Below are positions 37,257-41,638 of a stretch of 64,000 bases of DNA, in pieces. Numbering within the stretch: position 1 is the first letter of the stretch; each line of letters opens with the position of its first letter. The stretch covers positions 1 to 64,000 of the forward strand of contig NZ_LQPM01000034.1 in NCBI RefSeq assembly GCF_002101815.1. Reading direction: 5' to 3'. Source of the DNA: Mycobacterium paraense (GTDB taxonomy: Bacteria > Actinomycetota > Actinomycetes > Mycobacteriales > Mycobacteriaceae). A program made the position numbers and the translations under genes. The notes beneath the pieces are model-generated. The model saw only the letters and a program-made list of their open reading frames with translations, made no database searches and was not told where the DNA came from.

Positions 37257-38174
37257 CTATCCCTTGGGCCGGGCGAGTCGGTCGATGTGGGCGAGGAAGT
37301 GCTGTAGCACTTCCTCGGGCGCCTCGATTTGCGGCCAGTGCCCGATGTCGTCGGCGAGCATCACCACATCGGGGTTGGGTATCACCTCGGCGTAGCGGCG
37401 GGCCATGTGGGCACCGGAGTTCGGGTCGATCGGCCCGTCGATCAGCCGCATCGGAACCGCGGTCTGCCGCATGGCGCGCACCCACCGGTTGCGGTGCTTG
37501 TAGCGGTCGTTGATGAACCGGCCGACCTTGTGCAGCACGCGGCGGCCGTCGTTGTAATCCAGGATCTGGTTGAATACGTCCATCATGTGCCGGGTCGGCT
37601 TGGTGTTCGGCCCGAACATCTCGCGCAGCGTCGGTTCGAGGAGCCGGCGAGCAAGCGGGGTGTTCTGCACCTGGCTGAAGACGTCGCCCAGCGGGGTGCC
37701 CGACATCAGCTTCTGCGCGGCCCTGGGCGTGTACGACTCGATGAACATGCCGCCGTTGAGCCAGGTGATCGAGTCGATCTGTGGCGAGCCGTAGGCCTGT
37801 TGGCCGAATTCGTGGCGGGCCAACAGTTCCTGGCCCACCGAGTCGCCGATGTCGTGGGCCAAAATGTGCGCGTGGTCGATGTTGAGGTGCTGTAGGAGAG
37901 CCTCGTGCACGTCGGCGTGGTCTAGGACCGAGTACTCGTAGGCCACCGGTTTCGCGGAGAACCCCATGCCGATCATGTCCGGGGCGATGACGGTGAACCG
38001 TTGCGTCAGCGTCGGCCAGATCGGCGCCCAGTCGAACGTGTTGAACGGATAGCCGTGGATCAGCAGCAGTGGAGGCCCGCTGCCCTCGACGCGGTAGAAG
38101 ATGTCGAAGCCGAGGTAATCGAAGTACTCCCCCGAGTCCAGCCAGCGTTTCAGTTCAGCGTCCATGGTGGTCAT
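37257..38174 (-). CDS. Alpha/beta hydrolase with aspartate-nucleophile motif
   Basis: A 305-residue alpha/beta fold hydrolase. The oxyanion motif HGYPFNTFDW, the nucleophile elbow AHDIGDSVG and the C-terminal IGHWPQIEAP histidine are visible. The elbow carries Asp (HDxG) where esterases have Ser, as in haloalkane dehalogenases and epoxide hydrolases, so an ester-covalent Asp mechanism on a halide or epoxide is likely; MEST-like proteins share this elbow. Start: ATG at 38174, or the adjacent ATG at 38177, after GAAGGC; the frame further upstream is not coding-like. It is probably co-transcribed with the PPOX gene and divergent from the metallophosphoesterase-NACHT gene. Confidence 0.88.
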   Translation of the reverse strand: MTTMDAELKRWLDSGEYFDYLGFDIFYRVEGSGPPLLLIHGYPFNTFDWAPIWPTLTQRFTVIAPDMIGMGFSAKPVAYEYSVLDHADVHEALLQHLNIDHAHILAHDIGDSVGQELLARHEFGQQAYGSPQIDSITWLNGGMFIESYTPRAAQKLMSGTPLGDVFSQVQNTPLARRLLEPTLREMFGPNTKPTRHMMDVFNQILDYNDGRRVLHKVGRFINDRYKHRNRWVRAMRQTAVPMRLIDGPIDPNSGAHMARRYAEVIPNPDVVMLADDIGHWPQIEAPEEVLQHFLAHIDRLARPKG

Positions 38175-38273
38175 CATGCCTTCGGCATACCGATGGCTCG
38201 CACTCGCTGCGCAGCGTCGCCTGGCGCAAATGACGGCGGCGGCGCCATCGCGGTAGTAGCTCATAAGTCGGCC

Positions 38274-38302
38274 TTGGCTACTTGAGGGATCTTCACTAGG
38301 AT
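38274..38302 (+). promoter_or_regulatory. Promoter of the metallophosphoesterase-NACHT gene
   Basis: TTGGCT (38274-38279), a 17-base spacer, TAGGAT (38297-38302): a good sigma-70-type promoter, putting transcription start near 38309 and leaving a leader of about 16 bases before the GTG at 38325. The gene therefore has its own promoter inside the 150-base divergent gap. Confidence 0.6.
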
Positions 38303-38324
38303 TGCTGCACCGAGGCCTACAGAA

Positions 38325-41216
38325 GTGGCGAAGATGGTAAACGAAAAGGTCCATTGGGCATGGCTGCACCTCTCCGACATACATTTCGGTCATGGCAGTA
38401 AGCCGTACCAAGAGGAGCAAGAAGCGGTAATCACTGAAATTCTTTCTGCTGTTGAAGTACTTGTCGAAATCGGTGCGCCGAAGCCTGCAGCTATTCTACT
38501 AACCGGCGACATAGCATTCTCCGGCGGAATGGCACGTGGACCCCAGGAATACGCCGACGCTGTGGACCTGGTTTCGAAGTTAAGAAATCTGCTCGATAAT
38601 CACTTACCGGTGTTTGCCGTACCGGGAAACCACGATGTTCAGAGAACGCCGGACATCAAGGCCAATAACGAGAAGGATCTGCCAAATAACACGACTCGCC
38701 TCCTTCGCGCCTTACGTGATGCAAAGTCAGGTGAAAACCTCGACGATGTAATCCGTAATACCGCAGATACTGATCTAATTGCACCACGTTTTCAGAACTA
38801 TAATGAGTTTTGCCAAAAAATCGGCTCCCCCGTCGACGAGAACGCAGACGGCCTGTGGCTTGAAAGAGTCGATATTGGCGGAAATCTGAAAGTTCACCTT
38901 GCCGGCATGAATACGGCACTACTGTGTAATGACGATACAGATAAAGAAAAATTGAGCCTAGCGAAAGCTGCGAGCAATGCGGCCTTCCTGAACATACCAA
39001 AGGGCGATCTTGTCTTCGCCCTCACACATCATCCGGTTGATTGGCTGAATGCGGCGAACGGACCGTATCTAGCTCGGATGATGCGCAAATATGCTCACGT
39101 GCACCTTCACGGCCACATGCACGACCCAGAGACCCAAAGAATAACGTACGGCGCAGGAGGATCTCTTGTGACCGTTGCGGCGGGCGCCGTGCACCCTGAT
39201 GAAGCTGAAAACCGAGCTGGCACCCCTGCGACTTTTAGCGTGGGAGCCATCGTCGAACTGGACGACGGGTCTATAGCCATCCGAATCTGGCCTCGGCGAT
39301 GGGCCGGAAAACAGGTCCGTTGGGCCGCGGACTCCGAACAACTACCCGAGGGCTCGCCTTTCGTCGAGCACGTAATTCGGTCTCCGGTCCGGGCCGCACC
39401 GGTCCCGCTGCCTGGTGACCCCCTCCGGCGATTCGCCCGAAGCGCGGTTGCCGAGCTTGGGCGACGGCGAACTGCATTCCCAACAGACATGAGCGTCGAG
39501 GAACTTCGCGCCGCTGGCCTCGTAGTTACGACGCGCTTCGGCCGTCGAGGAGCGAAAGACCAGTCAGAACTGATGTCGGCTGGCAGCGTTATCGCCGACT
39601 ATTCCGAGAAGAACATTCTGATTTTGGGCGCCCCGGGCGCGGGAAAGACTGTGATCCTGTACGAAATTAGCAAAGGACTATTAGAGCAAACCGAGCGAGT
39701 CCCGATAGTTGTCGACATTGCCAAATTCAAAGATTCCAAAATACAGTTATCAGATTTGGTCCAAATAGGCGAGGTTAATCTTTCGAGTCTCGAAGAAAAA
39801 GTTAGATCATCGGGAGCCTTCATAGTTGACGGTATTGACGAAGCGCTCTCAGCAGGAGTAGCGGCTACGACCATCAGCTCGCATCTAAAGGCATTAGCAA
39901 AGATGGGCCAGCTAATAGTTTCCTGTCGAGAGAACGACTATGATTACACTCTTTCCGGCTACGTTCCCTTTGATATATTTGATCACATCTGGTATGTGCA
40001 TGACTGGGATCCCATGCAATTCGAACAGTTCGTTGCTCAACTGAACGAGGGCCACGTCTTTGTCGATCAGTCGCTGACTAGTCGGGTTCAAGCAGACCCC
40101 AACCTCGCTGCACTGGTACGCAGGCCATTACTCGCTCGCATGTTGACTTTCCTTGCCGATAATGGCGAACTTCCATCAGATCGCACGTCCCTGTATTCGG
40201 AATATATGAACCGACTCGGCTCGGCGACGGATGTGCGTGTTCGTGCCGTAGGATGCAATGATATTCCGAGTGCGGTGGATCTGTGGCAAGACTTATCTTG
40301 GCACATATGCCGCTCACAACTTGAACCTGACTCACTTTATCCCGCAGATTTAGCGCAATTCGCGCTCGATCAACACGCTTCAGCGCAATGCGTGCGCCGA
40401 GCCCTAGCCGGCATACTCGACATACAAGACGGCCCCTCCGCATATTTCCATTATTCATTCTATGAATTCTTAACGGCGCGGTATATATCGTCGGCACTTC
40501 AGCGCAACATGGGGTCAGATCCGGAATCATGCATAAGCCTTCTCAGGCGCGATCTCACGCCCGAAATCCGGCACCACCTCGTGGATCTACTGACGCGTTC
40601 CGGCATAGACCTAACCGAATGGCCTCACCATCTGGCCAAGATGTATAAAGATCCCGCGACGGAACATCTCCAGGACGGGCTAACGGTGAAAAACCTGTTG
40701 GCATACTTGGCATCTCGGCTCGAAGTGCCCGCCCATGAATCACTGGTGGAACTCCTGAGGGACGAGACGAATCTATTTCTCCGAAATAGTCTATCCTGGG
40801 CCCTTGCCCAGCAAAACAATTGGACGTACACAAGCAAGTACTTCGACGAACTTCAATCCGATCATAATTTAGCGTCTTACAACCGCGGTTACACGCTTTA
40901 CTACTTTGGAGACCTGCCCGAGTCCAAGGGGCCGCCCTATTCCGACGATCGCCCCGACAGAGCCTGGTTGAGAACACGCGGAGCCTTAAATCAGCGCTAC
41001 AACGCCGCCACGTACCCATCGCTGGCGCCCGCTCGCAAAGCGGTTGACATGTATACCTTCTGCGACATCGCCTGTGTTCGTAATGAATCCTTGACGGCCG
41101 AGGAGGTGGAGCGGTTCAGACGACTTGTTTCCTCGCTAGCGGCCGTCAAAGCGCCACCGAACGTAGTCGCGCAGCTGACCAAAAAACTGGACGAGACGGT
41201 CGCTGCCCGCTATTGA
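38325..41216 (+). CDS. Metallophosphoesterase-NACHT (STAND NTPase) fusion, candidate defence protein
   Basis: A 963-residue two-part protein. Residues 10-330 are a calcineurin-like metallophosphoesterase with every metal-site motif: DIHFG (18-22), GDIAFSG (61-67), GNHD (101-104), THHP (234-237) and HGHMH (262-266). From about 425 a NACHT-type NTPase follows: Walker A GAPGAGKT (435-442), Walker B AFIVDGIDEA (498-507), SCRENDY (533-539), RRPLLARMLTFL (599-610) and the C-terminal NACHT block HYSFYEFLTARY (near 705-716), then about 250 helical residues that could sense a trigger. There is no signal or membrane segment. NACHT proteins oligomerise on sensing a trigger; the phosphoesterase would be the effector, acting on nucleotides, nucleic acid or a phosphoester. 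The DNA is much less GC-rich than its neighbours, with many A/T-ending codons, suggesting transfer. GTG at 38325 or ATG at 38334 is the start. It stands alone, between conserved genes and a tRNA-Pro. Confidence 0.9.
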   Translation: MAKMVNEKVHWAWLHLSDIHFGHGSKPYQEEQEAVITEILSAVEVLVEIGAPKPAAILLTGDIAFSGGMARGPQEYADAVDLVSKLRNLLDNHLPVFAVPGNHDVQRTPDIKANNEKDLPNNTTRLLRALRDAKSGENLDDVIRNTADTDLIAPRFQNYNEFCQKIGSPVDENADGLWLERVDIGGNLKVHLAGMNTALLCNDDTDKEKLSLAKAASNAAFLNIPKGDLVFALTHHPVDWLNAANGPYLARMMRKYAHVHLHGHMHDPETQRITYGAGGSLVTVAAGAVHPDEAENRAGTPATFSVGAIVELDDGSIAIRIWPRRWAGKQVRWAADSEQLPEGSPFVEHVIRSPVRAAPVPLPGDPLRRFARSAVAELGRRRTAFPTDMSVEELRAAGLVVTTRFGRRGAKDQSELMSAGSVIADYSEKNILILGAPGAGKTVILYEISKGLLEQTERVPIVVDIAKFKDSKIQLSDLVQIGEVNLSSLEEKVRSSGAFIVDGIDEALSAGVAATTISSHLKALAKMGQLIVSCRENDYDYTLSGYVPFDIFDHIWYVHDWDPMQFEQFVAQLNEGHVFVDQSLTSRVQADPNLAALVRRPLLARMLTFLADNGELPSDRTSLYSEYMNRLGSATDVRVRAVGCNDIPSAVDLWQDLSWHICRSQLEPDSLYPADLAQFALDQHASAQCVRRALAGILDIQDGPSAYFHYSFYEFLTARYISSALQRNMGSDPESCISLLRRDLTPEIRHHLVDLLTRSGIDLTEWPHHLAKMYKDPATEHLQDGLTVKNLLAYLASRLEVPAHESLVELLRDETNLFLRNSLSWALAQQNNWTYTSKYFDELQSDHNLASYNRGYTLYYFGDLPESKGPPYSDDRPDRAWLRTRGALNQRYNAATYPSLAPARKAVDMYTFCDIACVRNESLTAEEVERFRRLVSSLAAVKAPPNVVAQLTKKLDETVAARY

Positions 41217-41358: not shown

Positions 41359-41386
41359 CATTCCGATGTCGTGCTTCACCACACCG

Positions 41387-41460
41387 TCGGGCTGACAGGA
41401 TTTGAACCTGCGACCACTTGACCCCCAGTCAAGTGCGCTACCAAACTGCGCCACAGCCCG
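41387..41460 (-). tRNA. tRNA-Pro (anticodon GGG)
   Basis: A complete cloverleaf reads on the minus strand: seven perfect acceptor pairs (CGGGCTG with CAGCCCG), a D arm GCGC/GCGC, the anticodon stem CTTGA/TCAAG around loop CTGGGGG giving anticodon GGG, and a T arm GCAGG-TTCAAAT-CCTGT (last pair a G-T wobble). Discriminator base A; CCA is not encoded. It decodes CCC (and CCU). It lies beside the AT-richer NACHT gene; tRNA genes often mark integration hot spots, but I found no duplicated tRNA end on the far side of that gene. Confidence 0.95.
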
Positions 41461-41638
41461 CATGCCGCCGCGATCACCGGCAGCAGGTCGACAGCCTACC
41501 GCAGCCGAGCCGCGGCCTGACGAATGCCCGAGCCAGCTGCGAGTCTGCCTCACGCCAAGCAGTTGTCGCTATGAGGCGGGCACATCGCCAATTCCCTCCG
41601 AGCCGAGGCGGAAGTGACGGCTGGGACTGCCACGACGC

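What the first reader, a model, noticed from the sequence alone, without database searches (positions are those of the whole stretch)
38325..41216. Single-gene candidate defence system: metallophosphoesterase fused to a NACHT NTPase
Seen: complete calcineurin-like metal-site motifs (DIHFG, GDIAFSG, GNHD, THHP, HGHMH) in residues 10-330, then Walker A GAPGAGKT, Walker B FIVDGIDEA, SCRENDY and the C-terminal HYSFYEFLTARY block of NACHT proteins, plus about 250 residues of possible sensor. The DNA is conspicuously less GC-rich than the flanks, and the gene has its own promoter (TTGGCT-17-TAGGAT) and sits beside tRNA-Pro. Known: bacterial NACHT/STAND proteins are anti-phage sensors whose N-terminal effector is usually a nuclease, protease or membrane domain. 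Inference: here the effector is a phosphoesterase, perhaps degrading nucleotides or a signalling phosphoester after oligomerisation. I do not know a named defence system with this layout.
Basis: partly seen in the sequence, partly recalled or inferred. Interest (0 to 1): 0.92.

Follow-up and report, generated by a model that had tools for sequence, protein, structure and literature searches.

The report
NLR-like phage sensor with phosphoesterase effector
A recently acquired single gene encodes an immune-receptor-like ATPase fused to a metal-dependent phosphoesterase; this layout has already been shown to stop phages in an E. coli screen, but here the phosphoesterase sits on a different, otherwise uncharacterised ATPase/sensor lineage.

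Summary
ORF 38325-41216(+), 963 aa, has a complete calcineurin-like phosphoesterase (all metal ligands) and an NLR-like NACHT module (AlphaFold model pLDDT 82; best PDB folds NLRC4 and NOD2), followed by about 240 helical residues. The claim that no named system has this layout is wrong: DS-8 (DefensePredictor, Science 2026, PMC13092281) is a single metallophosphatase-NACHT protein whose anti-phage activity needs both domains. The gene is not a DS-8 ortholog (125 bits against a cutoff of 790; similarity almost confined to the effector). It is a chimera. The effector belongs to the DS-8/GASH phosphoesterase group and is slightly closer to GASH. The NACHT plus C-terminus belongs to a separate actinobacterial family (420 bits over its whole length) that elsewhere carries membrane, cyclase-like or small adaptor-like N-termini. 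A Bacteroidetes MAG carries trypsin-phosphoesterase-NACHT of the same family. The gene is in 1 of 199 congeners searched, has GC 7.4 SD below its surroundings, and lies against tRNA-Pro, a site where congeners carry integrases, tRNA-end repeats and defence-type genes. Most likely it is an oligomerising sensor that activates a phosphodiesterase on phage infection. Substrate and trigger are unknown. Verdict: new variant of a known kind.

The parts
38325..41216 (+). whole gene, metallophosphoesterase-NACHT-helical C-terminus, 963 aa
38325..39374 (+). N-terminal calcineurin-like phosphoesterase (effector), aa 1-350; metal ligands D18, H20, D62, N102, H235/H236, H264, H266 invariant
39375..39602 (+). 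linker and conserved helix with the LGRRRTAFPTDMS motif that opens the NACHT module, aa 351-426
39603..40529 (+). NACHT NTPase and winged-helix region (Walker A aa 435-442, Walker B aa 499-507, HYSFYEFLTAR from aa 709), about aa 427-735; borders approximate
40530..41213 (+). all-helical C-terminal region, presumed sensor, conserved through its NRGYxLYYxGD and VDxYTFxDI motifs, aa 736-963
38274..38302 (+). weak promoter-like TTGGCT-17-TAGGAT (8 of 12 matches), not significant
41386..41460 (-). tRNA-Pro(GGG); its 3' end faces the gene; recurrent integration site in the genus
37257..38240 (-). alpha/beta hydrolase gene that borders the slot; same gene borders a different cargo in the nearest congener

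Best explanation
A horizontally acquired, single-gene, NLR-like anti-phage protein. At rest the NACHT module is closed with ADP. A phage product (or the damage it causes) is recognised by the helical C-terminal region; nucleotide exchange lets the NACHT modules assemble into an oligomer, bringing the N-terminal phosphoesterases together and switching on a two-metal phosphodiesterase that destroys a nucleotide (a cyclic or dinucleotide signal, or the nucleotide pool) and halts infection, probably by abortive infection. Shown by sequence and model: both domains, intact active-site residues, NLR-like fold, horizontal origin, tRNA-Pro slot. Inferred: sensing, oligomerisation, phage defence (by analogy with DS-8 and STAND proteins), substrate class.
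For: The same layout is experimentally anti-phage in DS-8, where metal-site or NACHT mutations abolish defence. The effector scores 111 bits with the DS-8 model and 161/136 bits with profiles built here from GASH-system and DS-8-like effectors; GASH effectors are predicted nucleotidyl phosphodiesterases (Kaur 2020, PMC7159879). The best folds and sequence relatives of the effector among solved structures are YydB, SMPDL3, Lmo2642, Rv0805 and GpdQ, ahead of the Mre11/SbcD nucleases. The NACHT module models as NLRC4/NOD2. Present in 1 of 199 congeners; GC -7.4 SD; the same slot in congeners holds integrases, type IIG restriction enzyme, OLD/AriA-like ATPase, TOTE primase-helicase, HsdR fragment, PIN and GNAT genes.
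Against: No phage assay. The NACHT family's other members sit beside radical SAM, HAD and nucleotide-kinase genes rather than in recognised defence islands, so the module's native job could differ. No second att copy and no integrase next to this gene. Substrate is not determined by any result here.
Confidence: 0.62

Rival explanations
1. Same NLR-like defence logic, but the effector is a nuclease (Mre11/SbcD-like) that cuts phage or host DNA or RNA after oligomerisation.
For: Sequence matches to SbcD/Mre11 models; PADLOC labels a related effector model 'Endonuclease'.
Against: Closer sequence and fold matches to cyclic-nucleotide and phosphodiester hydrolases (Lmo2642, Rv0805, GpdQ, SMPDL3) than to Mre11.
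Confidence: 0.25
2. Not a defence gene: a NACHT regulator of a metabolic or signalling function, as its relatives next to radical SAM, HAD and nucleotide kinase genes might be; the phosphoesterase tunes a signal in uninfected cells.
For: Ten other family members have non-catalytic or cyclase-like N-termini, and most of the loci examined have conserved radical SAM/HAD/kinase neighbours.
Against: The query lacks those neighbours in its window and the B12 radical SAM gene in its genome; sporadic, AT-rich, at an integration hot spot carrying defence genes; DS-8 precedent.
Confidence: 0.12

Closest known systems
DS-8 (NCBIfam NF053861; DefensePredictor, Science 2026)
   Same: Single protein, N-terminal metallophosphatase followed by NACHT; effector domains homologous (111 bits)
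   Different: NACHT/C-terminal part not detectably the same beyond the P-loop region (15-17 bits); total 125 bits against the 790 cutoff
PADLOC candidate PDC-S60
   Same: Phosphoesterase-STAND single-gene candidates; effector matches at 94 bits
   Different: STAND part of PDC-S60 members found here (L010, L026) is nSTAND4-like; only the effector aligns
GASH / GAP1-N1 GTPase-centric systems (Kaur et al. 2020)
   Same: Closest effector group by profile (161 bits)
   Different: There the effector is a separate gene beside GASH, GTPase and GAP1 genes; none of these is next to the query
Animal NLRs NLRC4 and NOD2; bacterial NACHT and Avs proteins
   Same: NACHT core fold (Foldseek E about 1e-10 to NLRC4/NOD2, 1e-5 to Avs4)
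   Different: Effector is an enzyme, C-terminus is helical rather than LRR; overall TM-score only 0.47

Membership tests
DS-8 (NF053861) | N-terminal metallophosphatase with intact catalytic motifs | tested here: met
DS-8 (NF053861) | Score above the equivalog cutoff (790 bits) over the whole protein | tested here: not met
   125 bits; a true member (L041, Paenisporosarcina plasmid) gives 1101
DS-8 (NF053861) | NACHT and C-terminal region homologous to DS-8's | tested here: not met
   profile of DS-8-like NACHT regions: 15 bits, P-loop only; profile of the other actinobacterial family: 420 bits over the full module; hhalign weak
DS-8 (NF053861) | Anti-phage activity needing both active sites | not testable with these tools
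   needs phage assay
NACHT / NLR-like STAND NTPases | Walker A, Walker B with DGxDEA, winged-helix HxSFxE motif | tested here: met
NACHT / NLR-like STAND NTPases | NLR fold of the NBD-HD-WHD region | tested here: met
NACHT / NLR-like STAND NTPases | Score over Pfam NACHT cutoff (26.7 bits) | tested here: not met
   16.7 bits; relatives of the same family also fall below
GASH / GAP1-N1 systems | Homologous phosphoesterase effector | tested here: met
   161 bits
GASH / GAP1-N1 systems | Neighbouring GASH, GTPase and GAP1 genes | tested here: not met
   neighbours are an alpha/beta hydrolase, tRNA-Pro and der
tRNA-borne genomic island | Element abuts the 3' end of a tRNA that is used as integration site in relatives | tested here: met
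tRNA-borne genomic island | Second copy of the tRNA end and an integrase bounding this element | tested here: not met

The most novel reading that the evidence does not exclude
The NACHT/C-terminal family is the core of an undescribed multi-gene conflict system in which an NLR-like ATPase is paired with a radical SAM enzyme and either a HAD phosphatase or nucleotide kinases (thymidylate kinase, NDK, cytidylate-kinase-like, NUDIX), perhaps making a modified antiviral nucleotide in the manner of viperin. The query would then be a reduced, single-gene branch in which a phosphoesterase replaces that machinery.
Probability: 0.2. Interest if true: 0.72.

Novelty: new variant of a known kind. Interest (0 to 1): 0.5.

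Why it matters
It shows that the phosphoesterase effector of DS-8 and GASH systems has been fitted to at least one more, distinct NACHT lineage, and extends this kind of immunity to a high-GC actinobacterium whose genes can be tested in M. smegmatis. It marks the still unknown substrate of these effectors as a common question for three systems, and it exposes a rare NACHT family associated with radical SAM enzymes that has not been examined.

Tried and rejected
Whole-protein scan of genome contigs found no relative, so the NACHT module was searched separately. No match in phages or viral contigs, so a phage-borne origin is unsupported; the viral scan with the effector alignment could not run. 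DNA searches of E. coli genomes with DS-8-like genes found nothing, so a Paenisporosarcina family member served as the DS-8 reference. The effector tree is unresolved; the join of query and Bacteroidetes NACHT modules is weak (57/47) and may be long-branch attraction, so one or two fusion events cannot be told apart. Promoter claim rejected as not above chance. No attL remnant near 38180-38330.

Full report
Observation. The ORF at 38325-41216 (+) is real: 963 aa, GTG start. Pfam finds Metallophos (E 3e-12, aa 14-268); NACHT falls below its cutoff. Every active-site motif of the calcineurin-like fold aligns without loss in 21 relatives, 14 columns being invariant. Walker A (K441), Walker B DGIDEA and HYSFYE are conserved in homologs. 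The gene's GC is 53.6% against 69.6 +/- 2.2% for 724 stretches of the same length (z -7.4). tRNA-Pro(GGG) lies at 41386-41460 on the minus strand. The promoter-like pair exists but is not significant.

Structure. An AlphaFold2 model of aa 351-963 (12-row alignment) has pLDDT 82 and pTM 0.82. Foldseek's best solved matches are NLRC4 (E 9e-11) and NOD2 (E 1e-10), then NAIP5 and Avs4. TM-scores are about 0.47, so the NBD-HD-WHD core is NLR-like while the helical C-terminus is not an LRR. The effector model (pLDDT 76, pTM 0.82) matches a B. subtilis YydD-YydB model (chain B, E 3e-17; organism and gene identity from my own knowledge of the names), then SMPDL3B, Lmo2642, Rv0805, GpdQ and SMPDL3A, with Mre11 further down. 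A profile search of PDB sequences gives the same order: Lmo2642, GpdQ, Rv0805, then Mre11/SbcD. This favours a phosphodiesterase acting on small nucleotide substrates, without proving it.

Known systems. NCBIfam's best hit is DS8_antiphage (125 bits, cutoff 790) and PADLOC's is PDC-S60 (94 bits); both have their best stretch in the N-terminus. DS-8 comes from DefensePredictor (PMC13092281): a single protein with metallophosphatase and NACHT domains, anti-phage in E. coli, with defence lost when either of two catalytic residues or a NACHT ATPase residue is mutated; its substrate is unknown. Calcineurin effectors in STAND and GTPase-centred conflict systems were also predicted computationally (PMC8195603; PMC7159879).

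A chimera. A profile built from ten other actinobacterial proteins, without the query, matches the query's NACHT plus C-terminus at 420 bits over the whole module; a profile of DS-8-like NACHT regions gives 15 bits around the P-loop. The ten relatives carry different N-termini: HaaT-like membrane segments (L022, L023), a segment I read by eye as nucleotide-cyclase-like (L024, L031, L038), a small adaptor-like domain (L033, L036, L037) and an unclassified one (L032); L034 is cut at its contig end. The cyclase-like and adaptor-like labels are my reading of the sequences, not database hits. Only the query and a Bacteroidetes MAG (L035: trypsin-phosphoesterase in one ORF, the NACHT module continuing after one frameshift) have a phosphoesterase. 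The two NACHT modules join only weakly (57/47). The query's effector scores 161 bits with a profile of GASH-system effectors from proteobacterial plasmids and 136 bits with a DS-8-like one, so this effector has been used with at least three kinds of controllers: GASH/GTPase systems, DS-8/PDC-S60 STAND proteins, and this NACHT family.

Acquisition. The gene is found in 1 of 199 congeneric genomes and, as a full-length protein, in no other of 399 order-level genomes; the module profile found no other among 395 class-level genomes. The tRNA-Pro is an integration hot spot: in several congeners 40-45 bp copies of the tRNA 3' end lie 1-36 kb away on the same side, and phage integrases sit beside it in G011 and G018. 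Nearby cargo includes a type IIG restriction enzyme and an OLD/AriA-like ATPase (G011), a TOTE primase-helicase with a GNAT gene (G002), an HsdR fragment (G012) and a PIN gene (G015). In the nearest congener (G001, der 88% identical) the slot between tRNA-Pro and the same alpha/beta hydrolase holds an SDR-TetR-P450 cassette (functions read from the sequences) ended by a 43-bp tRNA copy. The query's own island has lost, or never had, an integrase and a second att copy.

Mechanism. Best reading: ADP-closed NLR-like sensor; phage-triggered opening and oligomerisation through NACHT; proximity activation of the two-metal phosphodiesterase; nucleotide destruction and arrest of infection. Shown here: domains, intact sites, fold, origin. 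Inferred from DS-8 and STAND biology: defence, oligomerisation, trigger, substrate. A nuclease effector is the main rival; a non-defence regulatory role is less likely but not excluded, because the relatives' neighbourhoods (next paragraph) are not classical defence islands.

Unexpected context. Most relatives sit in conserved neighbourhoods: five with a HAD hydrolase and a B12-binding radical SAM protein (L022, L023, L032, L036, L037), and four with another radical SAM protein: L024, L031 and L038 with a NUDIX-like gene (L031 also a thymidylate-kinase-like gene), and L035 with NDK, thymidylate kinase and cytidylate-kinase-like genes. None of these genes is in the window, and the B12 radical SAM protein has no match in the genome. 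DS-9 also couples this phosphoesterase type with a HAD phosphatase. This is the most open question raised.

Noticed in passing
L022, L023, L032, L036, L037 (HAD + B12 radical SAM); L024, L031, L038, L035 (another radical SAM, with NUDIX or nucleotide kinases): Relatives of the NACHT module lie in conserved clusters with radical SAM enzymes and nucleotide- or phosphate-handling enzymes; possibly an undescribed conflict system.
   Followed up: partly
L035:5603-9201: Bacteroidetes MAG encodes trypsin-phosphoesterase-NACHT of the same family, interrupted by one frameshift (assembly error or real); recalls the protease fusions of AVAST, Hachiman and Lamassu.
   Followed up: partly
window 41386-41460 and congener loci L076-L095: tRNA-Pro(GGG) is a recurrent integration site in the genus, with repeated partial tRNA copies, integrases and defence-type cargo.
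   Followed up: yes
L095:6939-10457 (-): 1172-aa AAA-type protein near the same tRNA-Pro in another congener, unmatched by PADLOC; possibly another large defence STAND protein.
   Followed up: no
window 41563-41628: Dispersed repeat with about 40 partial copies in the genome, many in closely spaced opposite-strand pairs; looks like a REP or MITE-like intergenic element.
   Followed up: partly
window 39100-39600: GC inside the gene is uneven: 0.62-0.68 around the effector-NACHT junction against about 0.5 on both sides; could be a trace of the fusion.
   Followed up: no
loci L098-L108, L111-L115: Very large actinobacterial reading frames (about 760-2170 aa in most) with weak matches to the same phosphoesterase profile.
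   Followed up: no
Bacillus subtilis control genome and PDB 9a6c_B: The DS-8 model has a sub-threshold hit in B. subtilis and the effector's best fold match is in the YydD-YydB model; YydB-YydD may be a two-gene relative.
   Followed up: no
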